Made by a program: the position numbers and the translations under genes. Under the pieces are notes generated by a model, which did not search any database, had not been told where the DNA came from, and worked only from the letters and a program-made list of their open reading frames with translations. From a virus, in the IMG/VR virus record IMGVR_UViG_3300005613_000061, positions 1 to 63,788 of that record: a stretch of DNA of 63,788 nucleotides, one strand, 5' to 3'. Shown here in pieces: positions 162 to 63,203 of the stretch. Numbering within the stretch: position 1 is the stretch's first letter; every line of letters begins with the position of its first letter.

Positions 162-190
162 TTGACAAAAGACGTATCATATGTTATAGT
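162..190 (+). promoter_or_regulatory. host sigma-70 type promoter with extended -10
   Basis: TTGACA at 162-167, a 17-base spacer, then TATAGT at 185-190 preceded by TGT, an extended -10. The expected start of transcription is near 197, giving a short leader with a GAGGAG ribosome site before the ATG at 213. It is one of four sites with this architecture in the window. Confidence 0.75.
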
Positions 191-1930: not shown

Positions 1931-1939
1931 GGGTATAAT
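1931..1939 (+). promoter_or_regulatory. GGGTATAAT promoter box
   Basis: GGGTATAAT without a recognisable -35. The TATAAT ends 5 bases before the ATG at 1945, so transcription starting at the usual distance would begin at or next to the start codon. Confidence 0.6.
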
Positions 1940-4687: not shown

Positions 4688-4696
4688 GGGTATAAT
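4688..4696 (+). promoter_or_regulatory. GGGTATAAT promoter box
   Basis: GGGTATAAT in an intergenic gap, no -35 visible. Expected transcript start near 4703, giving a leader of about 30 bases with AAGGAGAAG before the GTG at 4735. Confidence 0.7.
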
Positions 4697-5454: not shown

Positions 5455-5847
5455 ATGCATAGAAAAAAAGACCCACTAAAGGAAAGAATATTAAGTTATT
5501 TAAAAATTAAAGGCATAGGAAAAGTTATAAGCATGTCCTGTGACATTCCAATACGTCGTAGATTGGCACGAACTGATACTTTAGAAAATAGAAGAAATTT
5601 AGATGAGTACGAGGATAGTATACAAGATAAAATAGCCGACAATAATTTATATACTTTAATGGGTGAGTTAGGGGTTAAAAAGTATTGCGATATAAATGAG
5701 CCACTATACAAGGCTATAGAACTTGGCGAATTATTGAAATGTTTAGAAGAGTATGGGGAATGTAAATACGCAAAAAATTGTTGGGTTACTCGAAAAGGAT
5801 TTTGCGAAAAGAAACGACAAGAGAGATTAAATGGAAAAGCGGGTTAG
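5455..5847 (+). CDS. hypothetical protein overlapping the tRNA gene
   Basis: 130 residues with a Cys cluster near the C-terminus (CKYAKNCWVTRKGFC) that could hold a metal. Not recognised. Its TAG at 5845-5847 lies inside the acceptor stem of the following tRNA, an overlap of 10 bases, so cutting the tRNA out of a read-through transcript would remove the end of this message. Confidence 0.6.
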   Translation: MHRKKDPLKERILSYLKIKGIGKVISMSCDIPIRRRLARTDTLENRRNLDEYEDSIQDKIADNNLYTLMGELGVKKYCDINEPLYKAIELGELLKCLEEYGECKYAKNCWVTRKGFCEKKRQERLNGKAG

Positions 5848-5913
5848 AGTAGGCGGTCAACTCACTGGGCTCATATCCCAGTTATACTGGTTCGATTCCA
5901 GTACCCGCAACCA
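5838..5913 (+). tRNA. tRNA-Met(CAU) with initiator hallmarks
   Basis: A 76-base cloverleaf with encoded CCA (5911-5913). Anticodon CAT is at 5872-5874 in a seven-base loop. Three features are those of bacterial initiator tRNA: position 1 (A5838) cannot pair with position 72 (A5909) while bases 2-7 pair perfectly with 66-71; the anticodon stem ends in three stacked G-C pairs (GGG 5867-5869, CCC 5877-5879); and the D stem carries A11-U24 (GAGT/ACTC). Reading the acceptor one base later would lose the CCA register. The T arm is ACTGG, loop TTCGATT, CCAGT. The variable loop is only 4 bases. An elongator tRNA-Met or a tRNA-Ile with modified CAU is less consistent. Confidence 0.88.
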
Positions 5914-6254: not shown

Positions 6255-6263
6255 GGGTATAAT
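6255..6263 (+). promoter_or_regulatory. GGGTATAAT promoter box
   Basis: GGGTATAAT with a palindrome in the place where a -35 would be. Expected transcript start near 6270, leaving a leader of about 13 bases before the ATG at 6283. Confidence 0.7.
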
Positions 6264-8407: not shown

Positions 8408-8455
8408 TTTATTTTAGTTATAGCTATGTACAAATCTGCAATCACATGTTATTAT
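8407..8455 (+). promoter_or_regulatory. host-type promoter with a conserved upstream block
   Basis: TGTACA at 8427-8432, 17 bases, TATTAT at 8450-8455 preceded by TGT. The 29 bases at 8407-8435 are identical to 56072-56100 ahead of the replication genes, so the two promoters share an upstream AT-rich element or operator. An inverted repeat GTTATT/AATAAC overlaps the -10 and start region. Confidence 0.75.
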
Positions 8456-9298: not shown

Positions 9299-9869
9299 AA
9301 TAAGAAAAATAATACCGATAATAATTCTTTTTATTCTCTGTGGTTATACGTTAGCATGTGCAGAGACAGTTAATCAATTAAGAGTATTATACAAGAACGA
9401 CCCACACGGATTAGCCAAATGGATGAAGGGCAATATTACATATACAAAAGACTGGGACGACATACACCAATCTCCACATGTTACGGCAAAGACAGGTAAA
9501 GCAGATTGTGAAGACTACGCTATATTAGCAAGAGCCGTTTTAGGTAAAGGAAGATTAGTAGTAGAAAATGATGGTCATAACAAACATGTAATATTAGTGT
9601 TTTGGCATAAAGATATAAAATATGTATTTAGCAATCAATATTTACAAAAGTCTCAAGATTATAAATACGGCACGAATAAGAAAAAGTTTGTGCCTGATAT
9701 AAAGAATAAGTTTAAGATAGTAGGCACTAGCGCCGAGATTTTGAAGTTAAAGAGAGAAGTACAGAGATTAAAGGACGACCCATTTAATGCTGGTTATTTT
9801 AGAGATACAGAGATAAGAAAGTTAGAGGGTAAAATATATAAACTTCAAAGACAGTTAAACAGGGTATAA
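9279..9869 (+). CDS. exported transglutaminase-like cysteine peptidase
   Basis: 196 residues. A basic start, hydrophobic core (11-26) and ACA/E cleavage near 28 make a Sec signal peptide. KTGKADCEDYAILARAV at 71-87 is the GDCEDYA-type catalytic motif of bacterial transglutaminase-like Cys peptidases, with C77 as nucleophile and H103 (NKHV) as the likely His. A coiled coil follows (about 150-196). Acting outside the membrane, it could cut envelope proteins during lysis or surface remodelling; the target is unknown. TAA overlaps a GGGTATAAT box. Confidence 0.75.
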   Translation: MRTIINRIRKIIPIIILFILCGYTLACAETVNQLRVLYKNDPHGLAKWMKGNITYTKDWDDIHQSPHVTAKTGKADCEDYAILARAVLGKGRLVVENDGHNKHVILVFWHKDIKYVFSNQYLQKSQDYKYGTNKKKFVPDIKNKFKIVGTSAEILKLKREVQRLKDDPFNAGYFRDTEIRKLEGKIYKLQRQLNRV

Positions 9870-9870
9870 T
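9862..9870 (+). promoter_or_regulatory. GGGTATAAT promoter box
   Basis: GGGTATAAT overlapping the stop codon of the gene before. As at 1931, exactly 5 bases separate TATAAT from the next ATG (9876). Confidence 0.6.
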
Positions 9871-11364: not shown

Positions 11365-11393
11365 TTGACAAACATATAAAATCGTGTTACTAT
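11365..11393 (+). promoter_or_regulatory. host sigma-70 type promoter with extended -10
   Basis: TTGACA at 11365-11370, 17 bases, TACTAT at 11388-11393 preceded by TGT. The following ATAAGTATAACAC resembles the start regions of the promoters at 8427 and 56092. A GGGAGG site and the ATG at 11418 follow. Confidence 0.85.
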
Positions 11394-13355: not shown

Positions 13356-13515
13356 GAAAAAACGCAACAAAAAAGTTACAGTATTAGACATTATAAAAGG
13401 GATAAGAAAAGTATGGGAAATAAACCCAAAAACACGAATTAAGAGAAGTAAGAAAGGGTATAATAGAACTAGGGATAAACGAGTTATAGAACGAAGGGGG
13501 AAATATGAACACTAG
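13336..13515 (+). CDS. conserved small basic phage protein
   Basis: 59 residues, MGDYVSKKKRNKK. The core RKVWEINPKTRIKRSKKGYN matches a very common small phage protein I recall as W-I-P-TR-K-SKK-Y with unknown role. It overlaps the gene before by 20 bases. A GGGTATAAT box lies within it (its GYN codons) but also 40 bases before the next start. Confidence 0.65.
   Translation: MGDYVSKKKRNKKVTVLDIIKGIRKVWEINPKTRIKRSKKGYNRTRDKRVIERRGKYEH
13456..13464 (+). promoter_or_regulatory. GGGTATAAT promoter box
   Basis: GGGTATAAT, inside the small basic gene and 40 bases upstream of the ATG at 13505, with AAGGGGG before that ATG. The codons GGG TAT AAT could explain it by chance, so it is weaker than the intergenic copies. 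Confidence 0.5.
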
Positions 13516-15786: not shown

Positions 15787-15795
15787 GGGTATAAT
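15787..15795 (+). promoter_or_regulatory. GGGTATAAT promoter box
   Basis: GGGTATAAT in the gap behind the RNA ligase gene; the start codon used downstream is at 15839, with GGAGG at 15824-15828. Confidence 0.7.
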
Positions 15796-16076: not shown

Positions 16077-16238
16077 ATGAGAAAAGAATTATATAACGAA
16101 ATAACCAAACATCTTTATGTAGCGACTTTGGCAAACTTTGATAGAGCAGTAAAAAAGATACGTTATCAATTAAGAGAAGTAGGCTACGATGAAGAGACCA
16201 TAAAAAAGTACATAGATTCACGTATTTTAAGGGTATAA
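16077..16238 (+). CDS. small helical protein
   Basis: 53 residues, MRKELYNEITKHLY, all helical and basic. Its TAA (16236-16238) lies within the next promoter box. The ribosome site GAGGAAG precedes it. Not recognised. Confidence 0.55.
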   Translation: MRKELYNEITKHLYVATLANFDRAVKKIRYQLREVGYDEETIKKYIDSRILRV

Positions 16239-16239
16239 T
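16231..16239 (+). promoter_or_regulatory. GGGTATAAT promoter box
   Basis: GGGTATAAT overlapping the stop codon of the gene before, 21 bases ahead of the ATG at 16261 with AAGGAGG in between. Confidence 0.7.
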
Positions 16240-17496: not shown

Positions 17497-18564
17497 ATGA
17501 AAAAGTTACCATACGTTTTGATTAGTTTAGTACTTTGTATGATAATGAGTATAAGTTGTATAAAATCGGCGGAGGCGTTTTGGTTTTTTCCGACACAGTA
17601 CGATAAGAGTCAAGATACGAAAATAACTAAAAACGAAACGGATATAGCACAAATAGAAAGCAGAGTTGCCGAAAATCGTCTTGGAACGGGGAGCGAAAAT
17701 ACAACCGCACCATACGGGTATAATGATTATATTCCAGAAAACGGGTTTAAGAATTATATTCATAATGAAGGTTATTCCAAGATATACGACTATAAGCCGA
17801 ATAATGTAAATACTACGGCAGTGGGTTATTACGGGAAAGCGGGCAATCCCGATAGTTACGATGTAGATTATGTATTAACAGAGGAATATAATAAATACAG
17901 TAGTCAAATGCAAGATGTACGTATAGACATAAATAAGAATAATATAGATATAAATAAAGTTAACATACGTACTAATAAAAAAGCCATAGCAAAAGAAGTA
18001 ATACAACGTGTTAAGGCGGATAAAAAGTTGAATAAAAGAGTAACTACAGTTGACAAAAGTAGTAGACGACGAGATAAAATACTTAACAAAAAAATTATTA
18101 AAAACGTTGGAAATATATTAATAAATAAAAATAACATTACGGATAATTCAAATCGTATTAATTCCAATTTATATACATTACAAAATCACGAAGGACGTAT
18201 CAGTACAAACGAGGGGAATATATCGAATAATACGAGTCGCATAGCCGGATTAGAAAACAAAGTTGATGAGTTAGAAGAAACCGCAGTAGGGATACACGCA
18301 GAAGTTGATTTATATGATAGTCGTTATTTTAAAATAGGAGCATATGCTACCTCTGATATACGACACGGACGATTAGATAGCGTTATGGGAAAGATTACAT
18401 TAAAGCCATTTAAAAGTTATGAGTTAAAGAGATTAGAAAGATTAGAGAAACAATTAGCTATGTACATTGATATGGATGAATGTAACTCATTAGAATATAA
18501 AGAGTTAGAGTTAATAGAAACAAGAAATCCTGATGGAACGATAACTATTAGTACAAAAAAATAA
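17497..18564 (+). CDS. exported coiled-coil surface-like protein
   Basis: 355 residues. Signal peptide MKKLPYVLISLVLCM with AEA/F cleavage near residue 27. From about 140 there are repeated Asn-rich heptads (INKNNIDINKVNI, NKNNITDNSNRIN, NEGNISNNTSRI) as in trimeric autotransporter stalks. The C-terminal part HAEVDLYDSRYFKIGAYATS and LDSVMGKITLKPFKSYELKR is strand-rich. A trimeric stalk anchored at or released from the host surface is my inference; no proven membrane anchor is visible. Confidence 0.65.
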   Translation: MKKLPYVLISLVLCMIMSISCIKSAEAFWFFPTQYDKSQDTKITKNETDIAQIESRVAENRLGTGSENTTAPYGYNDYIPENGFKNYIHNEGYSKIYDYKPNNVNTTAVGYYGKAGNPDSYDVDYVLTEEYNKYSSQMQDVRIDINKNNIDINKVNIRTNKKAIAKEVIQRVKADKKLNKRVTTVDKSSRRRDKILNKKIIKNVGNILINKNNITDNSNRINSNLYTLQNHEGRISTNEGNISNNTSRIAGLENKVDELEETAVGIHAEVDLYDSRYFKIGAYATSDIRHGRLDSVMGKITLKPFKSYELKRLERLEKQLAMYIDMDECNSLEYKELELIETRNPDGTITISTKK

Positions 18565-18580: not shown

Positions 18581-18589
18581 GGGTATAAT
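18581..18589 (+). promoter_or_regulatory. GGGTATAAT promoter box
   Basis: GGGTATAAT in a 41-base gap ahead of the genes leading into terminase; TAAGGAG and the ATG at 18606 follow. Confidence 0.7.
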
Positions 18590-19159: not shown

Positions 19160-19661
19160 TAATGACAATTCAAAACCGGCATTTATAATGTCACTGAATG
19201 ACTATATACGTATTATAGAACTTGCTGAAAAACACGGTAAAAAGCCCGGTGACAGTATGGAAGAGGAGTTTTTTCAAGTACTTCAAGAGAAGGGGAACAA
19301 TATTAAATTACTGGGTGATGCTACGGACCCAGAAATACTTAAGGCGAACTTAAGAGAACATGGTATAGGGGTAGGAAAAGATAAGCTAGATGTACTGGAC
19401 TTACGAAAGAAGAAATATAAAAAGACAGACAATGTTTTAACTCCAGACGAGTACAGATTAATATTAGAGAAAATTACAGAACAGATATATAAAGGATTGC
19501 CCATAAAGTCTATAGATACTAGAATGGATTTAATAAAAGGAGTTGTCACAAAAATTACTCTGAATTTCACAGGACAAGCTCAGATGATATTTGACGGAGA
19601 CGCCATAGCCAAGACAAATAACAAATTTTATAATGTCATTATTGATTATTTAAACAAGTAA
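19152..19661 (+). CDS. hypothetical protein, possible small terminase by position
   Basis: 169 residues, MNNNDNSKPAFIM. It lies directly ahead of the large terminase. There are helical segments (SLNDYIRIIELAEKHGKK, DEYRLILEKITEQIY), but I see no clear helix-turn-helix. Naming it small terminase would rest on position only. GGGAG lies 10 bases before the ATG. Confidence 0.5.
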   Translation: MNNNDNSKPAFIMSLNDYIRIIELAEKHGKKPGDSMEEEFFQVLQEKGNNIKLLGDATDPEILKANLREHGIGVGKDKLDVLDLRKKKYKKTDNVLTPDEYRLILEKITEQIYKGLPIKSIDTRMDLIKGVVTKITLNFTGQAQMIFDGDAIAKTNNKFYNVIIDYLNK

Positions 19662-19711
19662 AACAAAAGGAGATATGTAGATTCTTTAACGTAAAGGACA
19701 ATAAATCACAT

Positions 19712-32018: not shown

Positions 32019-32027
32019 GGGTATAAT
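32019..32027 (+). promoter_or_regulatory. GGGTATAAT promoter box
   Basis: GGGTATAAT directly behind the stop of the MuF gene, followed by repeats of ATATA and AGGAGA before the ATG at 32053. It is the only copy inside the structural block apart from one within the HNH gene. Confidence 0.7.
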
Positions 32028-33426: not shown

Positions 33427-33486
33427 AAATATGCTAAAAAGTAAAATATGACTATTGTAAAACATTCTTTATTATACAGCATATTT
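33427..33486 (+). repeat. inverted repeat in a gene-free gap
   Basis: AAATATGCT (33427-33435) and AGCATATTT (33478-33486), a 9-bp perfect pair enclosing 42 bases, the second arm running into TTTTT. It could be a terminator-like or leader structure ahead of the gene at 33501. Confidence 0.4.
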
Positions 33487-33727: not shown

Positions 33728-34390
33728 ATGATAATTCAAGTACTAGAACATAGTATACGAAAAACTGAGCCATGTATATTGTTGAATAAGAACATTTTAA
33801 TAAATATGCCAGCCCTAACAAAAAGTATCGAGGTTGACCACATACTACTTACTCATGCTCATCAAGAAAATATAAAAGGCTTTAATCAAATACTAAAAAA
33901 AGAAAAGGGATTAACTCAGTTATACGTACATAAAGACCACGAACACGCCTTATTACACAATACTGCGAATTTAACCGACAAATGCATAATCAAAAATATA
34001 ACTCCAAATAAGAAATTTAAAATAGACGGCATAACGATACAGCCAATACATGTACGTCATACGGTACAAAAGAGTCATTCAGATATATGCCTCGCATTTC
34101 TTATAGATAAACGCATAATGTACTGTAGTCCCTGTAACGATATACCAAAAAAGAATTTAAAATATTTTAAAAATTTAAATGTACTGATTCTAGACGGCGG
34201 TTATCGAGGAAAAGCCAAATACGATGACCACCTATCCATGAATAAGATATTAAGTATTGTTAAAGATTTTAATATAAAATACCTATATTTTCTCGGAACA
34301 CACAAAGACTATAGCATAAAAGGCAAAATGCGTAATAGAAAGACGTATATAGATACGTTATTTACTGGAGATATAATAAAAGTAAAATAA
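33728..34390 (+). CDS. metallo-beta-lactamase-fold protein with altered metal motif
   Basis: 220 residues. LLTHAHQENIKGF takes the place of the HxHxDH motif but reads HAHQEN, so the Asp-His pair is Glu-Asn. A His near 111 (IHVRHTVQ), an Asp in LDGGYRGKAKYDDH and a final GTHKDYS occupy later motif positions. The order resembles PhnP-like phosphodiesterases. With two metal ligands changed, activity may be lost or shifted. Its place next to the prohead protease is unexplained. Confidence 0.7.
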   Translation: MIIQVLEHSIRKTEPCILLNKNILINMPALTKSIEVDHILLTHAHQENIKGFNQILKKEKGLTQLYVHKDHEHALLHNTANLTDKCIIKNITPNKKFKIDGITIQPIHVRHTVQKSHSDICLAFLIDKRIMYCSPCNDIPKKNLKYFKNLNVLILDGGYRGKAKYDDHLSMNKILSIVKDFNIKYLYFLGTHKDYSIKGKMRNRKTYIDTLFTGDIIKVK

Positions 34391-34452
34391 TATTTATATA
34401 TAGTATTCTTTATAATAGATTATATTGTCCATTCAACCAATACGGAGGTTTT

Positions 34453-37162: not shown

Positions 37163-37732
37163 ATGTTTAGTAAAGTTTGTTTAATATGTGGAAATCCACA
37201 TAATAATAAAAAATACTGTTCAAGGGCATGTACAAATACAGCCACCAAAAAAGGAACAGTACTTACCGAAAACCACCGCACCAAAATAGCTAAATCTATG
37301 CAAGGGAAAAATAAGAGTAAAGAAAATCCCTTTTATAGTAAATGTCACTCTAAAAAAACTCGTAAGTATATAGGTGACTGCCAGCGTGGAGAAAAACATC
37401 ATTACTATACCGAAAAAAATACTTTATTTAAAGCAAACGGCTATATTAAAATTAATATAAGAGAGGAACATCCGTTTTTAAGAAAGGGTATAATGTCATA
37501 TCATAGATTCGTTATGGCAAATCGTTTAGGACGTAAATTACTCAAGACGGAGGTTGTACATCACAAAGACTGTAACCCTTTAAATAACGATATTAAAAAT
37601 CTAATGTTATTTAAAAATAAATCTGAACATAATAAATATCATGCAAAATTTAATAGAATTGCTGCCAAACTGTTAGGAAATAAGACAGCCAAAGAACTTA
37701 TACAGACATATCATATATTAGAGAAGGAATAG
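37163..37732 (+). CDS. free-standing HNH homing endonuclease with NUMOD3-like region
   Basis: 189 residues. An N-terminal zinc knuckle (CLICGNPH, YCSRACTN), a NUMOD3-like DNA-binding stretch (HRTKIAKSMQGKNKSKENPF, residues about 38-57), then the HNH core TEVVHHKDCNPLNNDIKNL near 131-150. It cuts DNA to spread itself; its insertion right behind the capsid gene is typical. It carries an internal GGGTATAAT box (37486), probably by chance. Confidence 0.85.
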   Translation: MFSKVCLICGNPHNNKKYCSRACTNTATKKGTVLTENHRTKIAKSMQGKNKSKENPFYSKCHSKKTRKYIGDCQRGEKHHYYTEKNTLFKANGYIKINIREEHPFLRKGIMSYHRFVMANRLGRKLLKTEVVHHKDCNPLNNDIKNLMLFKNKSEHNKYHAKFNRIAAKLLGNKTAKELIQTYHILEKE

Positions 37733-43038: not shown

Positions 43039-43091
43039 TATTAAAACTACTATAATAAAATAGTATCTTTATAATAAGGTAATGTATATCT

Positions 43092-55613: not shown

Positions 55614-55705
55614 CTATATAATACTTGCACAAATCCTCAGTTATAGACCATAATTCCTTTAATTATAAGCAGTTAAATATCTATAGACCCTAAATATCCA
55701 TATAC

Positions 55706-55722
55706 TTATAGTTAAACTATAA
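55706..55722 (+). repeat. 17-base palindrome
   Basis: TTATAGTT A AACTATAA, two perfect 8-base arms around a single base. A dimeric regulator could bind here. Confidence 0.6.
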
Positions 55723-55893
55723 CTTGCCCAAATTATAAGTATATAGCGCCTAACGTCTTTAATTATAAGCATTTATAACCTTGACTCCATCTGACCTTCC
55801 TAAAACTATACCCGACTACAATAAACCCTATTAAAGCCTTATATACATAACTTCTTTCCTAGCAAGTAGTTATGCGATATAGGCCGGATACAT

Positions 55894-55916
55894 GCGTATA
55901 TACATCATATATACGC
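55894..55916 (+). repeat. 9-bp hairpin
   Basis: GCGTATATA, loop CATCA, TATATACGC. Perfect stem with no U-tract behind it, so it is not a standard terminator. Confidence 0.6.
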
Positions 55917-55973
55917 CACAGAATAGCCGGAACCGCTCCAATTCTTACCTGTATGAAGCCATTATTTAAATAG

Positions 55974-56057
55974 AATATGTTATATATACACAATTTAAAG
56001 CCCTTTAAAACGCGAATATGGAGACCGTTTATATAAGCTATTGCTATATAACATATT
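55974..56057 (+). repeat. 13-bp inverted repeat enclosing a 7-bp inner stem
   Basis: AATATGTTATATA (55974-55986) pairs perfectly with TATATAACATATT (56045-56057). Within it TTTAAAG/CTTTAAA (55994-56009) forms a second stem. A T-rich stretch follows at 56061-56070, so it may be a structured RNA end or a terminator of the virion operon. Confidence 0.5.
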
Positions 56058-56071
56058 AGGTTATTTTTTTC

Positions 56072-56120
56072 ATTTATTTTAGTTATAGCTATGTACAAAT
56101 TAGCTACGGCATGTTATTAT
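56072..56120 (+). promoter_or_regulatory. host-type promoter with conserved upstream block
   Basis: TGTACA at 56092-56097, 17 bases, TATTAT at 56115-56120 preceded by TGT. The 29 bases at 56072-56100 are identical to 8407-8435. AAGGGGAAAC and the ATG at 56143 follow. It drives the replication genes and the sigma-like factor. Confidence 0.75.
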
Positions 56121-56142
56121 ATAAGTAACAAGGGGAAACAAG

Positions 56143-57192: not shown

Positions 57193-57201
57193 GGGTATAA
57201 T
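57193..57201 (+). promoter_or_regulatory. GGGTATAAT promoter box
   Basis: GGGTATAAT behind a TTGACA (57179-57184) that lies only 11 bases upstream, too close to act as its -35. The gene at 57251 follows. Confidence 0.7.
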
Positions 57202-57250
57202 AGAGTATATAAATCTATAACAATTTAATAACTTAATGAGGAGAAAACTA

Positions 57251-57679
57251 ATGTCAGAGACTAAGAGAGAGAAGCAATTAAAAATCCTACTCACGGAAGC
57301 AAAACCTATTTTTTCCAAAATTGATAAGATAGGGAAGGAATTATTTGAGGGAACAGACAGAAAGTTAGACTATTATTATAATATACTAGACGTATTGAGT
57401 GGGTGTTATACGTACTTGGCACCAAATACAAAACGTTTAGAGTCTGACAAGAAAAACGATGAATTGGATAAGTACATGAATTTGAAAATGGAGGCGGCAA
57501 ATAACGAAACAAAATTTGTATCGGCTCCTGCAGAACGTGAAGCGTCATTGACTGTAAAACATTTACGAAAAGCACGTAATGTTTTTCAAGGGTATTTAGA
57601 GGCAACAGCCATGAATATAAATACAGCAAAACGTCATATTCGTAGTTACGAGAATGAGAATCAAGTACAAATTGATTAA
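57251..57679 (+). CDS. helical protein, UvsY-like by layout only
   Basis: 142 residues from the ATG at 57251 (GAGGA at 57238-57242 rules out 57236). Nearly all helical; SAPAEREASLTVKHLRKAR followed by AMNINTAKRHIRSYENE recalls the later half of T4 UvsY, a recombination mediator of similar length found near replication genes. The likeness is too weak for a name. Confidence 0.5.
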   Translation: MSETKREKQLKILLTEAKPIFSKIDKIGKELFEGTDRKLDYYYNILDVLSGCYTYLAPNTKRLESDKKNDELDKYMNLKMEAANNETKFVSAPAEREASLTVKHLRKARNVFQGYLEATAMNINTAKRHIRSYENENQVQID

Positions 57680-57681
57680 TA

Positions 57682-57690
57682 GGGTATAAT
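57682..57690 (+). promoter_or_regulatory. GGGTATAAT promoter box ahead of the sigma-like gene
   Basis: GGGTATAAT 17 bases before the ATG at 57707, with AAGGAGGGG between. Suggests that the sigma-like factor may drive its own gene. Confidence 0.72.
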
Positions 57691-57706
57691 AGAAGGAGGG
57701 GAAACT

Positions 57707-58162
57707 ATGACTAATTTAACGTTAGCCGTGATAGGGTATAAAGTTACGGACGAATCGGATTTACTAGTTTTAATTCTACAAGAGGTAAGAGGGATAGTAG
57801 AAAAATGTATACTAGGCAGCGGACTTCAATCGCTTTCGCAAGTTATTAGAGATGAAATAGTTGCAGACTGTAATACATTTGTATTGTTAAAAGCCATAGA
57901 AAGTTTTGACGAGAGCAAAGGCACAGAGTTTTCAACACATTTTTATTGGCAAGTACGACATTATGTGTCACATGCGCAAACAAAATTATATAGACAGAAG
58001 AGGCGAGGCAGATTATATGCGTATAGTCTTGATGACTATAGATATACAAATAATACTGAAAAAAATAGAGCTAGTTTGGCGGATACTATTCCCAGTAGTG
58101 GAACTGCCATAAAACTGCGAGAAAGAACGCTTACAGAATTATATAACATTTTTAATATTTAA
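57707..58162 (+). CDS. sigma-like factor with region 2 and no region 4
   Basis: 151 residues. VLLKAIESFDESKGTEFSTH and YWQVRHYVSHA (about 59-90) match regions 2.2-2.4 of sigma-70 family factors (core-binding helix, FD-KG-FSTY block, W-R helix that reads the -10). YSLDDYR and SLADTIPS (107-130) resemble the linker behind region 2. The protein stops at 151 and the primase starts 15 bases later, so region 4, which reads the -35, is missing. This fits the GGGTATAAT sites, which lack a -35. T4 gp55 has a similar reduced architecture. Region 1.1 is absent too. Confidence 0.78.
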   Translation: MTNLTLAVIGYKVTDESDLLVLILQEVRGIVEKCILGSGLQSLSQVIRDEIVADCNTFVLLKAIESFDESKGTEFSTHFYWQVRHYVSHAQTKLYRQKRRGRLYAYSLDDYRYTNNTEKNRASLADTIPSSGTAIKLRERTLTELYNIFNI

Positions 58163-58176
58163 ACTAGGAGTATAAT

Positions 58177-60438
58177 TTGAAAATAAAAAATGCAGGCGAA
58201 GTAATTGACCAATTACGTGCGTTGCTACCTACTTATTTACGTGATAGCGAATTAATTTTTAAGTCTCAAAGTAACAGAGAGAATTTTCAATGTCCTAATC
58301 ACAACGAACACGAAAAGGGCAAGAATGATACACGTCCCTCCTGTGGATTTATTCCAGACAGTGATAATGAGAGATTCCATTGTTTTACGTGCGGTATATG
58401 CGGAGATATTTTTACAGCAGTAAAGTGTTTAGAGGGCAAAGATATTACAGGAGCAAATTTTTATAATGTAGTAAAAGAATTGGCACATAGATATAATATA
58501 AAATATGAGACCGAGGAGCCAACAGAAGATGAAAGACGTTTTATGCTCGCACAGAAGTTCTTAACTACAATTATATCTCAATCAAATATATATTTACTAC
58601 AGAAGAAGCCCAAAAAAGTAATAAATTACTTAAAAAAACGTGAGTGGAATACATTGGCGGAAGACTATAAATTTGGGTACCTTCCCGCAAGTTCACAAGT
58701 AAAAGACTTTTTTATTAAGACATTTACGAAACATCCTGTACTAAAAGAAATGATAAGCATTAGTGATGAATTGATAACAGACCGTTTAATAATTCCTGTA
58801 CTATCGCAACACGGGACTATATTAGGGTTAATAACACGAGAAATTAATAACGGCGATAAACGTGGGAAGTATAGAAAACATTTTTTGAAAGTACTAAAGA
58901 ATGATGGTATATTATTCAATCTTAAAAAAGATATGTCTAGCGCCTACATTGTAGAAGGCTCTAGTAGCGTACTAACTATGGAGAATTATGGCATTGATAA
59001 CTCAGTAGCAGTATTAGGAAGTAGCTTTACAGAGGATATGTATAATAAATTGATTAAACACGGCGTATATGAGATAACATTGTGCTTTGATGGGGATAAT
59101 GCAGGACAAAAATGTTATGATAAAGCGATAACAATAGTACAAAATAAACCAGACATCAAAGTATATATTAAAAAATTACCGGAGGAACTAGACCCAGATG
59201 ACTATATAAGGCAGTATGGCAAAGAGGCATTTGAAAAATTAAATAGGATAAGTTTATTTAAATATCAATTATTCCGATTACGGGAAGATATGGAAAACAT
59301 AAGTTTGAAACACTCGGTATATAGTTTAATATTATCGTGCGATGATAATATTATTCAAGAACGTATGTTTAAGTTATTCATTAAAACACTTAAGACACAA
59401 AAAACTGCATTAATGGCAGAGTTAAAAAAATTTGAGATGTTAGGAAAGTCAATGAATGATTTTACGGTTACAGAAATGCTAGAGGAAAAAGACAGTCTTA
59501 CGACGCATATAGGAAAATTTGAAGAGACGGCATGGAGAGGCGATAAGTTACTGGGAGTTAGCACTGGATTTAATATATTGGATGATAAACTTGACGGAAT
59601 ACAGTCAGGTTTACATGAGATAGGAGGCACATGGAACGTAGGGAAGAGTGCATTTTTATTATCTATAGCGTTAAATATGCTAAAAAATCCTGACGTACAT
59701 GTTTTGTATTTCTCTATAGATGACCCAATATTAACTAAAACAATTCCACGAGCATTAGCAAACTTAAGTATGATACCGATAAATACGGCGGCAAATCCAT
59801 ATTATAGAATACAGAAGAATGAAACATTAAAAGAGATTGAACGTATAGAATTAACCCAGAAAAGAGAAAAAGCTTTGGACCTCTTAAGAAATTTAAGTAC
59901 TCGTTTTAGTTTAAAGGATGCTAGTGATGGGTATAATTTAGACTTCATAGAGAAAATGATTAAGATACGGCGACTAATAGCCGAAGATAAAAAATTAGTT
60001 TTATTCGTGGACTTCTTACATATGGTATCTGATGGTAAGAACACAGACGAAACGGCATTATTAACCGAAGTAAGTAGGTCATTTAAAAGATGGAGTACAT
60101 TGTACAATATGCCAGTAATAACTACTGTGCAAAGTATAAAAAGTAGCAGTACGGGAACCAAGATGAATGATAGGGATATTAAGGGTAGCGTATCGTTGCA
60201 ATATGACGCCGACACAATTATGCTACTGTCTAGCGAGTTTTATAGCGACCCTAAGACTCAGATGTATTTTCGAGACGAAGACGGAGAAGCTAGACCTATT
60301 GTACGAGTAAAGATAACTAAAAATAAAATAAGCGGGTACAAAGGAACATTGTTTTATAAGTTTTATCCAGAATATAGTTTATTTAAGGAATGTGAAGAAG
60401 AAGAAATGAGAAAGCATAGGGGAGGAGTAGAGAGATAG
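58177..60438 (+). CDS. primase-helicase
   Basis: 753 residues from a TTG start behind AGGAG. It primes and unwinds DNA at the fork. The zinc site is CHC2-like (C39, H42, C69, C72). The Toprim domain has YIVEGSSSVLTMENYG near 256 and CFDGDNAGQK near 304. The DnaB/RecA-like helicase starts near 450 with GVSTGFNILDDKLDG, the Walker A GTWNVGKSA near 484-492, and VLFVDFLHMVSD as Walker B. This domain order is that of T7 gp4-like bifunctional proteins. Confidence 0.92.
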   Translation: MKIKNAGEVIDQLRALLPTYLRDSELIFKSQSNRENFQCPNHNEHEKGKNDTRPSCGFIPDSDNERFHCFTCGICGDIFTAVKCLEGKDITGANFYNVVKELAHRYNIKYETEEPTEDERRFMLAQKFLTTIISQSNIYLLQKKPKKVINYLKKREWNTLAEDYKFGYLPASSQVKDFFIKTFTKHPVLKEMISISDELITDRLIIPVLSQHGTILGLITREINNGDKRGKYRKHFLKVLKNDGILFNLKKDMSSAYIVEGSSSVLTMENYGIDNSVAVLGSSFTEDMYNKLIKHGVYEITLCFDGDNAGQKCYDKAITIVQNKPDIKVYIKKLPEELDPDDYIRQYGKEAFEKLNRISLFKYQLFRLREDMENISLKHSVYSLILSCDDNIIQERMFKLFIKTLKTQKTALMAELKKFEMLGKSMNDFTVTEMLEEKDSLTTHIGKFEETAWRGDKLLGVSTGFNILDDKLDGIQSGLHEIGGTWNVGKSAFLLSIALNMLKNPDVHVLYFSIDDPILTKTIPRALANLSMIPINTAANPYYRIQKNETLKEIERIELTQKREKALDLLRNLSTRFSLKDASDGYNLDFIEKMIKIRRLIAEDKKLVLFVDFLHMVSDGKNTDETALLTEVSRSFKRWSTLYNMPVITTVQSIKSSSTGTKMNDRDIKGSVSLQYDADTIMLLSSEFYSDPKTQMYFRDEDGEARPIVRVKITKNKISGYKGTLFYKFYPEYSLFKECEEEEMRKHRGGVER

Positions 60439-60440
60439 CC

Positions 60441-62963
60441 ATGGCTAAATGTGAAAAATGTGACCTATATAAAACATCATGCGCAGGAAAGTTTACTCGT
60501 GTAATGATAAACGACTACGGAAACTTTGAGTCGGATATTTTAATTGTTGGGGGCGCTCCCGGGTATCAAGAGGTAGTGGATAATGAACCTTTTGTAGGAG
60601 AAGCTGGGAGATTAGTGCGAAAAAATTTGCAGTCCTTAGGGCTAGGAGAGAATGACTACTACATGACTAGCATATGTCTATGTCGTCCACCAGAGGGAAG
60701 AGAGCCTTCCAAGAACGAAGTAGCAACATGTTTTAAGTACTTGGAAGATAAAATATTAAATATGAAGCCCCGCGTTATAGGACTACTAGGAAAAACCGCA
60801 TGTACGGCTTTTGGCATAACAGATAAGATAACAGCTATACATGGAAATCAAGTATGGAGTAAGAAATATAATTGCTGGTTATTGCCACTATATAAGGCGG
60901 GCTACGTGTTAAAATTTATAAATATGGCGAAACAACGAAGAGAATTTTTAGCGGATTTAGGCAAGTTAAAGACATTAAATATAGAGGATAAGGATAAGGA
61001 AGATGTAAAATATGCTGTGGCTGATACTATGGAGAAGGTTAAAAAAGCCCTTATATATCTTTTAAAACAAAAGTATGTCGTATTTGATATTGAGACCAAT
61101 ACTTTAGATTTTCAACAGTCTAAAATAGCATGTATATCATTTTCGGCTAAAGTAGGTACTGCGATAGTTATACCATATCAATATGATACAATATTTACTA
61201 AAAAGGAACAGAAGTTGATTAAGAGAGGACTACAGAAGTTCTTTAGTAGTTCAGTAAAGAAGGTTGCCCAGTATGGCAAATTTGATATAAAGCATCTTAT
61301 GAAACAAAATATTATAGTAAATAATTATGTATTTGATACTGGGCTAGCACATTATTTATTAGATGAAAAAGGATTACATAACTTAGACATACTTATACAG
61401 AGTTATACAGACATGAGAAGCCACAAAAAAGATATTAGCGAATACTTAAAATCTTTAAAGGGAGAAATATTTAATAAAATTTTTGAGTTGGAACCAAGTA
61501 AGCTGTTTAGTTATGCCGCAAAAGATGCTGACGCGGAGTTCAGACTTTTTCTAAAACTATTAAAACTTTTAAAGAATAATAATTTATTAACGTTATTTAC
61601 GAATATAATGATGCCTTTAACAATGATTTTGGCGCAAATGGAACTTAAGGGAATTCTAGTTGACAAGGATTATGTAGATAAAATGAATGTACATTTTAAA
61701 TATAAATTAAAAACATTAACGATAGATTTATATAAAGATAATTTCGTAAATGAGTATGAAGAAAATAAATTTAAGCTATTAAAGTTAGAAGAGAAAAAAA
61801 AGAAACGCCCTCCAAAAAATCCATTAACAAGAGAAGATGCAAAAGTAAAATTTAATTTTAATAGCCCTGTTCAATTAAGAGAATTATTATATCAAGTAAT
61901 GGAAATAACACCTATAAAATATACTAAAAAATCTAAAAAATATCCTGATGGCAATCCGAGTACAGATAAAGATACATTAGAAACCTTAGCGCAAACTACG
62001 AAATATAAGTTATTAGCGGATTTATTAGCTTATAGGAAAGCAAAGAAATTGGCGGATTATGTTCAAAGTTATAAAGAACTTGCTGAAGATTCTTTAGATG
62101 GACGTATTCATACTAATTTTAATCAGGCAGTCACTGCAACAGGGCGATTAAGTAGCTCCGCACCAAATTTGCAAACTATACCTAGTAAAGAAAGAGACCC
62201 GGAAGGAGCCATATTAGTACGGAATTGTTTAATAGCTAAACCAGGTTATTCATTAATAGAGTCTGATTATTCTCAAATGGAATTTAAATTATGGGGAGCG
62301 TATTCTCAAGATAAGAGAATGATAGATTATATATTATCCGCAAATCCTAATGATGAGAATACGGATATACATAGACGAGTTGCTGCTATGATATTTAATA
62401 TACCCGTAGAGAAAGTAACAAAACATCAACGAGCTCTTTCAAAAGCTGCAGTTTACGGAGTAATTTATGGTATGACAGAGTATGCCTTAGCTGCAAAGTT
62501 TGATATTTCTGAAGCGGAGGCACTTAGAGTTATTAATGGTTTATTTAATACTTTTCCTCAAGGAGAAAAATGGATACAAGAACAAATTGCTATTGCGCAT
62601 GATACAGGCCAAGTACGTAATATGTTTGGTCGCATTAGAAGATTAGATGATATATATAATAGAGATAGGGGAAAAGTTTCTCATGCAGAACGTCAAGCAC
62701 AGAATTTTCCTATCCAAAGTGCAAGTGCGGATATAGCGTTTATGGCTATGATTAAATTAAATAAAGAAGTCTGTGATAATACAGCATATATGGTATTAAT
62801 GGTACACGATAGTATTATAGTAGAGTGTGAAGAGTCACGAGTTATAGAAGTAGCCACAAAGATGAAGTATGCTATGGAAAACGCGGTTAAGCTGTCTGTA
62901 CCGCTTCCTGTAGATGTAAAGGTTGGAAAAAAACTTGGAGAAATGTCAGAAATAGAATTTTAA
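60441..62963 (+). CDS. family A DNA polymerase with N-terminal UDG-like domain
   Basis: 840 residues. Residues 1-175 are a UDG family 4/5-like domain with Fe-S cysteines C4, C7, C81 and C97, but GEAPG reads GGAPG (37-41) and the HPS motif reads LYKAG near 150-154, so glycosylase activity is doubtful. The 3'-5' exonuclease begins with FDIETNTLDF near 214. The polymerase has motif A ESDYSQMEF near 607, motif B RALSKAAVYGVIYG near 662 and motif C MVHDSIIVE near 788. Tyr replaces Phe762 of E. coli Pol I in the O helix, as in T7. UDG-Pol fusions are known in SPO1-like phages. Confidence 0.93.
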   Translation: MAKCEKCDLYKTSCAGKFTRVMINDYGNFESDILIVGGAPGYQEVVDNEPFVGEAGRLVRKNLQSLGLGENDYYMTSICLCRPPEGREPSKNEVATCFKYLEDKILNMKPRVIGLLGKTACTAFGITDKITAIHGNQVWSKKYNCWLLPLYKAGYVLKFINMAKQRREFLADLGKLKTLNIEDKDKEDVKYAVADTMEKVKKALIYLLKQKYVVFDIETNTLDFQQSKIACISFSAKVGTAIVIPYQYDTIFTKKEQKLIKRGLQKFFSSSVKKVAQYGKFDIKHLMKQNIIVNNYVFDTGLAHYLLDEKGLHNLDILIQSYTDMRSHKKDISEYLKSLKGEIFNKIFELEPSKLFSYAAKDADAEFRLFLKLLKLLKNNNLLTLFTNIMMPLTMILAQMELKGILVDKDYVDKMNVHFKYKLKTLTIDLYKDNFVNEYEENKFKLLKLEEKKKKRPPKNPLTREDAKVKFNFNSPVQLRELLYQVMEITPIKYTKKSKKYPDGNPSTDKDTLETLAQTTKYKLLADLLAYRKAKKLADYVQSYKELAEDSLDGRIHTNFNQAVTATGRLSSSAPNLQTIPSKERDPEGAILVRNCLIAKPGYSLIESDYSQMEFKLWGAYSQDKRMIDYILSANPNDENTDIHRRVAAMIFNIPVEKVTKHQRALSKAAVYGVIYGMTEYALAAKFDISEAEALRVINGLFNTFPQGEKWIQEQIAIAHDTGQVRNMFGRIRRLDDIYNRDRGKVSHAERQAQNFPIQSASADIAFMAMIKLNKEVCDNTAYMVLMVHDSIIVECEESRVIEVATKMKYAMENAVKLSVPLPVDVKVGKKLGEMSEIEF

Positions 62964-62966
62964 ATA

Positions 62967-62975
62967 GGGTATAAT
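62967..62975 (+). promoter_or_regulatory. GGGTATAAT promoter box
   Basis: GGGTATAAT directly behind the polymerase gene. AAAGGG and the ATG at 62997 follow. Confidence 0.7.
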
Positions 62976-62996: not shown

Positions 62997-63203
62997 ATGT
63001 CAATTAAGATTAAAAAACATTACAGTCGTAATATTAATCTTGGTAATTATCAGACTCTACGAATAGGTATTGATATTGAAAAGGTTATATTAGACGAAAG
63101 TGAGATTGAGAAGACTAGCATTGAATTATTAAAGATTGGAAGTAAACAGGTTAATAAGGAGTTACGTAAATTAAAAGAAAAGCTATGCGATAAATCAATT
63201 TAA
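62997..63203 (+). CDS. conserved small phage protein
   Basis: 68 residues. RNINLGNYQTLRIGIDIEK is a motif I recall from conserved phage proteins near replication genes; the rest is a charged helix. Function unknown. Confidence 0.65.
   Translation: MSIKIKKHYSRNINLGNYQTLRIGIDIEKVILDESEIEKTSIELLKIGSKQVNKELRKLKEKLCDKSI

What the first reader, a model, noticed from the sequence alone, without database searches (positions are those of the whole stretch)
57682..58162. Region-2-only sigma-like factor matched to a family of -35-less GGGTATAAT promoters
The protein at 57707 has sigma regions 2.2-2.4 and ends before region 4. Twelve sites upstream of genes (1931, 4688, 6255, 9862, 13456, 15787, 16231, 18581, 32019, 57193, 57682, 62967) carry the same nine bases GGGTATAAT. 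At the ones I inspected closely there is nothing like TTGACA 17 bases upstream. From base composition I expect well under one to about one copy on this strand by chance. The pairing of a factor without the -35 reader and promoters without a -35 is logical and was not planned into the annotation. The factor's own gene has the box and lies downstream of a host-like promoter, so a cascade with self-amplification follows. T4 gp55 is the nearest known parallel; I know of no described case with GGG ahead of the -10.
Basis: partly seen in the sequence, partly recalled or inferred. Interest (0 to 1): 0.88.

Follow-up and report, generated by a model that had tools for sequence, protein, structure and literature searches.

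The report
Phage sigma factor and single-element promoters
An unclassified virus of bacteria carries many identical nine-letter 'start here' signals in front of its takeover and replication genes, plus a cut-down sigma factor of the kind that reads such signals; the signals look like real promoters, but that this factor reads them is likely rather than shown.

Summary
GGGTATAAT occurs 15 times on the + strand and never on the other (0.84 expected on both). Eleven copies are intergenic although about 8% of the window is noncoding. They lack a -35 and most carry a TA initiator at a fixed distance, so they are almost certainly promoters. The 151-aa protein folds as sigma domain 2 and ends before region 4.2.

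Relatives found here carry the same sigma gene at the same place (p147-sigma-primase/helicase-polymerase), but 198-202 aa long with region 4; the window lineage lost it. Those relatives also have -35-less boxes, with ATA instead of GGG before TATAAT. So region loss does not explain the missing -35. The boxes sit almost only in early/replication regions: a middle-like class. Best reading: the sigma reads the one-element middle boxes (0.55); rival: host sigma-A reads them and this sigma serves late genes. phiEco32 gp36, besides T4 gp55, is an established precedent.

The parts
57707..58162 (+). Sigma factor reduced to domain 2 (151 aa); ends before region 4.2; residues 133-149 form a predicted low-confidence C-terminal helix
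   Evidence: sequence; fold; longer orthologues L024, L043, L105
57682..57690 (+). GGGTATAAT box directly before the sigma gene; L043 has ATAATATATAATAGAAAGGAGG at the same place
57193..57201 (+). GGGTATAAT box before p147 gene
62967..62975 (+). GGGTATAAT box before the 68-aa gene; orthologous boxes in G006 24216 and G011 22685
1931..1939 (+). GGGTATAAT box
4688..4696 (+). GGGTATAAT box
6255..6263 (+). GGGTATAAT box, before MazG-like gene
9862..9870 (+). GGGTATAAT box overlapping the stop of the upstream gene
13456..13464 (+). GGGTATAAT box inside the end of a small ORF (less certain)
15787..15795 (+). GGGTATAAT box
16231..16239 (+). GGGTATAAT box
18581..18589 (+). GGGTATAAT box
32019..32027 (+). 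GGGTATAAT box, the only intergenic one among the virion genes; same site is AGGTATAAT in L015 and GGCATATAAT in G001
17716..17724 (+). In-gene GGGTATAAT, probably not a promoter
37486..37494 (+). In-gene GGGTATAAT inside an HNH endonuclease gene; has the TA initiator, status open
59929..59937 (+). In-gene GGGTATAAT in primase/helicase, probably not a promoter
57236..57679 (+). p147, unknown function; conserved neighbour upstream of the sigma gene in L024, L043, L105
58177..60438 (+). Primase/DnaB-type helicase fusion (TTG start, 14 bp after the sigma stop)
60441..62963 (+). Uracil-DNA-glycosylase-like / exonuclease / family A DNA polymerase
62997..63203 (+). 68-aa protein, about 50% identical in clade B
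56092..56120 (+). Host-type early promoter TGTACA-17-TATTAT with TG extension, at the start of the region with the sigma gene
8427..8455 (+). Host-type early promoter sharing TTTTAGTTATAGCTATGTACAAAT with 56092
11365..11393 (+). Host-type early promoter TTGACA-17-TACTAT, TG-extended
162..190 (+). Host-type early promoter TTGACA-17-TATAGT, TG-extended
19658..19688 (+). Late-class bipartite promoter-like site (GTAAAAC-N18-TCTTTA) before terminase
33441..33471 (+). Late-class bipartite promoter-like site
34382..34412 (+). Late-class bipartite promoter-like site before the capsid protease; conserved at this place in G001, L015, L017-L019, G006, G011
43041..43071 (+). Late-class bipartite promoter-like site, conserved in L015, G006, G011

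Best explanation
GGGTATAAT is the single element of a phage middle-promoter class (-15 to -7), used by host core RNA polymerase carrying the phage sigma at 57707. Early genes, including the region with p147, sigma and the replication genes, start from host sigma-A promoters that have a -35 and a TG-extended -10. The sigma domain 2 then takes the place of sigma-A, reads TATAAT plus the triplet ahead of it without any -35, and starts RNA 6 nt downstream at a YA initiator. It raises its own gene and the replication and takeover genes. Virion genes use a third, bipartite class read by another factor. Shown: boxes, absence of a -35, initiator, sigma-2 fold, synteny and box conservation in relatives. 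Inferred: that this sigma reads the box, the timing, and the feedback.
For: Box statistics, no -35, initiator TA at 5-6 nt, p 8.5e-6. Sigma domain 2 fold (T4 gp55 7d7c_F Z 9.9, rmsd 2.7 over 100 residues). Box and sigma travel together: clade B (G006, G011, L043) has the orthologous sigma, its own -35-less box, and boxes at corresponding places. The triplet differs between clades (GGG against ATA) while sigma region 2.4 has diverged strongly. The late class is almost unchanged between clades although the window sigma lost region 4, so in the window that -35 is not read by this sigma's region 4. Clade B has a separate split sigma-like pair that could read the late class. Relatives sharing primase/polymerase but without the sigma nearby show no such repeated box. 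Precedent: phiEco32 gp36 (PMC8948821).
Against: TATAAT is the host sigma-A consensus, so sigma-A with a helper could read the boxes. Clade-B sigma keeps region 4 yet its boxes have no -35. Sigma residues at the presumed -10-reading positions differ greatly between clades although TATAAT is constant. No late-class reader was found in the window itself. Co-divergence of box and sigma rests on two clades only.
Confidence: 0.55

Rival explanations
1. The boxes are middle promoters of the host sigma-A holoenzyme, helped or remodelled by a phage factor that makes the -35 dispensable (as T4 AsiA/MotA do in their way). The phage sigma at 57707 serves the late bipartite promoters and is itself a middle gene driven by a box, with the -35 read by a separate protein.
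For: The core is a perfect sigma-A -10. The late class (TAAAA / TCTTTA) is not sigma-A-like and needs a dedicated reader. Region 4 of the clade-B orthologues best matches SigF and FliA, whose -35 is TAAA-like (from general knowledge). Only one sigma was recognised in the window. A sigma gene expressed before the late genes is usual for late factors such as SPO1 gp34 (PMC3601020) and T4 gp55.
Against: The window sigma lacks the -35-reading HTH while its late -35s are intact. No region-4 protein was found in the window. In clade B a separate split sigma-like pair exists beside the terminase small subunit gene. Twelve identical boxes are stricter than the four early sigma-A promoters. Clade-B boxes have no TG-extended -10.
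Confidence: 0.3
2. The boxes are recognition sites of some other phage DNA- or RNA-binding factor (operator, processing site), and their TATAAT is incidental.
For: p147 and the 68-aa protein are also conserved next to boxes and have no known function.
Against: The initiator TA at fixed distance in both clades, TATAAT constant while flanks change, and placement before genes all fit promoters.
Confidence: 0.07
3. Chance or compositional repeat in an A+T-rich genome.
For: None beyond the A+T-rich composition (34% G+C).
Against: 15 against 0.84 expected and none on the other strand; P(intergenic) 7e-10; independent analogue in relatives.
Confidence: 0.01

Closest known systems
Phage phiEco32 gp36 and its middle/late promoters (PMC8948821)
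   Same: Phage sigma without recognisable region 4; promoters have one strictly conserved -10-like element; start 6-8 bp downstream; early genes use the host sigma
   Different: Element is tAATGTAtA, not GGGTATAAT; gp36 falls in PHROG 1740, the window protein in PHROG 351; gp36 serves late genes too
T4 gp55 with gp33 and gp45 (PMC2988020, PMC7892883)
   Same: Sigma domain 2 without region 4; promoters without a -35; structural match Z 9.9 over 100 residues; hydrophobic C-terminal end
   Different: gp55 serves late genes with coactivator and clamp; here box genes are early/replication; no gp33 or own clamp recognised in the window; gp55 was not among the PDB sequence hits
SPO1 gp28 / gp33-gp34 (PMC3601020)
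   Same: Sigma cascade of a virulent phage; clade-B orthologue L105 shares PHROG 351 with gp28 and is gp34-sized
   Different: SPO1 late promoters are bipartite, CGTTAGA(N17-19)GATATT; the window sigma lacks region 4
Host sigma-A extended -10 promoters
   Same: TATAAT core; can act without a -35
   Different: GGG (or ATA) instead of TGn; strict invariance; separate TG-extended early promoters coexist in the window

Membership tests
sigma-70 family, domain 2 | Sequence similarity to region 2.2-2.4 | tested here: met
   Pfam 1.4e-3 (below its cut-off), PHROG 351 4.9e-5, SigA alignment 58-91
sigma-70 family, domain 2 | Domain 2 fold | tested here: met
   Model with block-mean pLDDT 76-89 over residues 1-90; the 50 listed structural matches are sigma factors, best Z 11.6
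sigma-70 family, full length | Region 4 with -35-reading HTH | tested here: not met
   Absent in window; present in the orthologous family
T4 gp55-type late factor | Sigma 2 only, reading promoters without a -35 | tested here: inconclusive
   Both features are present in the genome, but that this protein reads those promoters is untested
T4 gp55-type late factor | Its promoters serve virion (late) genes | tested here: not met
   If the boxes are its promoters: only one intergenic box lies among virion genes; these carry a bipartite class
T4 gp55-type late factor | C-terminal clamp-binding motif and clamp dependence | tested here: inconclusive
   C-terminus LTELYNIFNI is hydrophobic; no clamp recognised in window, beta clamp in relative G011
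phiEco32 gp36-type sigma | Sequence family PHROG 1740 | tested here: not met
   Window protein hits PHROG 351 only; relative L024 hits 1740 at 2.2e-6
phiEco32 gp36-type sigma | Transcription in vitro from the single element | not testable with these tools
   needs purified protein
host sigma-A promoters | -35 element or TG-extended -10 | tested here: not met
   No TTGACA enrichment; triplet is GGG, or ATA in clade B

The most novel reading that the evidence does not exclude
In this phage lineage a full sigma lost its -35-reading domain because its promoters use a single element, and the triplet at -15 to -13 acts as a lineage-specific code (GGG, AGG, GCA, ATA) that co-diverges with the sigma. 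That would be a natural series showing how a sigma factor and its promoter set are re-coded together, beside an independent, conserved late class read by another, possibly split, sigma.
Probability: 0.35. Interest if true: 0.75.

Novelty: new variant of a known kind. Interest (0 to 1): 0.55.

Why it matters
It would extend -35-less transcription by a phage sigma from two well-studied coliphages to a phage group without close relatives among named phages, probably with Gram-positive-type hosts (inferred from strong Shine-Dalgarno sequences). Related genomes supply natural comparisons: the same sigma with and without region 4, the same promoter sites with different triplets, and a conserved late class beside them. 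That makes promoter-sigma co-evolution directly testable.

Tried and rejected
Single-sequence folding was useless (pLDDT 38); three homologues were needed. tblastn of the sigma and of the capsid against named phages gave nothing. The terminase and single-protein viral scans gave one or no relative; capsid, polymerase and primase alignments worked. GTDB genomes gave no host. GGGTAAAAT in relative G001 first looked like a box variant; it is the -35 half of the late class. The weak region-4 hit w_32961 looks like a zinc-ribbon protein, not region 4. A literature search for the nine bases listed no phage promoter paper among the 15 shown of 71. Late factor by homology in the window: none found.

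Full report
What is in the window. The record is a 63,788-base virus contig, 34% G+C, with its recognisable genes on the + strand: ligase and many small genes (0-19 kb), virion genes (about 19-56 kb), then p147, sigma, primase/helicase and polymerase (57-63 kb).

The boxes. GGGTATAAT is found 15 times on + and 0 times on -, with 0.84 expected on both strands. Eleven are intergenic, P = 7e-10 given 7.8% noncoding. No -35 is present. Counting TATAAT as -12 to -7, A stands at -18 in 11/12 and at -16 in 12/12. TA occurs at nt 5-6 after TATAAT in 8/12 (p 8.5e-6; 12/66 in other TATAAT), which is what an initiator 6 nt downstream would look like. Host-type promoters exist separately: four with a -35 and TG-extended -10, one of which (56092) stands at the start of the region with the sigma gene.

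The protein. Sequence searches point to sigma factors. With homologues the model of residues 1-90 is confident, and the structural matches listed are sigma domain 2: S. aureus SigB Z 11.6, T4 gp55 Z 9.9. Helical bundles can reach middling Z by chance; what counts here is that the 50 listed rows are sigmas and that sequence agrees.

Relatives. Capsid, polymerase and primase alignments brought in relatives absent from named phages. L024/G006, L043 and L105/G011 have p147-sigma-primase-polymerase in the same order. Their sigma proteins are 198-202 aa and include region 4 (PHROG 351 2.5e-11 for L105; family profile hit to SigF region 4 at 8.7e-6). The window protein stops at the first helix of region 4 and the primase starts 14 bp later, so the loss is a clean deletion, not a frameshift with remains. 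Clade-B boxes are AATATATAATA: 9 forward, 0 reverse, 8 intergenic, 0.5 expected in G011; 5, 0, 4 and 0.4 in G006, with TA at nt 6-7 in 11/14. Boxes stand at corresponding places before the sigma gene (window, L043) and before the 68-aa gene (window, G006, G011). At the 32019 site L015 has AGGTATAAT and G001 GGCATATAAT. TATAAT is constant; the triplet before it is lineage-specific.

A third class. Before virion genes lies GTAAAA[TC]-N18-TCTTTA. Over the first six contigs TAAA[AT] occurs 14 times at the right spacing and at most 3 times at any other from 8 to 34; the class recurs at the protease and other genes across more contigs, some of them near-identical. It is not host-like and not box-like. 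In G006 and G011 an 84-aa region-4 protein (Pfam Sigma70_r4 3.1e-6) follows a 100-aa protein that looks like region 2 (weak: PHROG 1740, E 0.13), beside the terminase small subunit gene. This split pair is a candidate late reader. No orthologue was recognised in the window.

Weighing. What supports the sigma as reader is the joint conservation and joint divergence of sigma and boxes, the near-constancy of the late class in spite of region-4 loss, and another candidate for the late class in relatives. What weakens it is that TATAAT is the host consensus and that the window's own late reader is unknown. I give 0.55 to sigma reading the boxes and 0.3 to the rival.

Known ground. phiEco32 gp36 lacks region-4 homology and reads the single element tAATGTAtA with starts 6-8 bp downstream (PMC8948821). 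T4 gp55 reads a -10-only late promoter with gp33 and gp45 (PMC2988020, PMC7892883). SPO1 gp33/34 uses CGTTAGA(N17-19)GATATT (PMC3601020). Staphylococcus phage K late promoters also lack a recognisable -35 (PMC11598898). The kind is therefore known; the element, the region loss within a family and the triplet series were not found described. The library holds only open papers, so a parallel described elsewhere cannot be excluded.

Limits. ORF calls are mechanical, orthologue numbers are small, contigs are fragments, and the timing classes are inferred from position only.

Noticed in passing
window 19658-19688, 33441-33471, 34382-34412, 43041-43071; G001, L015, L017-L019, G006, G011, L113-L122: Bipartite promoter-like class GTAAAA[TC]-N18-TCTTTA before virion genes, fixed spacing, conserved at orthologous places across the group; reader unknown in the window.
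   Followed up: partly
L111:10996-11295 (-) and L111:10745-10996 (-); orthologues in G006: Adjacent small genes resembling sigma region 2 (weak) and sigma region 4 (Pfam 3.1e-6), i.e. a possible split sigma factor beside the terminase small subunit gene.
   Followed up: partly
window 8427 and 56092: Two early promoters share TTTTAGTTATAGCTATGTACAAAT exactly, suggesting a common operator or upstream element.
   Followed up: no
window 55614-56142: 529-base noncoding stretch between tail genes and the replication region with direct repeats (79% over 34 nt) and inverted repeats; possible origin or control region.
   Followed up: no
G001 (L009/L014) 96, 5953, 13183: Three intergenic GGCATATAATAGAACAA copies, one before terminase, where the window has the late class instead.
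   Followed up: partly
L105:12911-13936: Relative G011 encodes a bacterial-type beta sliding clamp after its polymerase, with a clamp-loader-like protein in the same region; none recognised in the window.
   Followed up: no
window 37163-37732: HNH endonuclease gene inserted after the capsid gene, absent at that place in L015.
   Followed up: no
window 5838-5913: Single tRNA-Met (CAT) gene.
   Followed up: no
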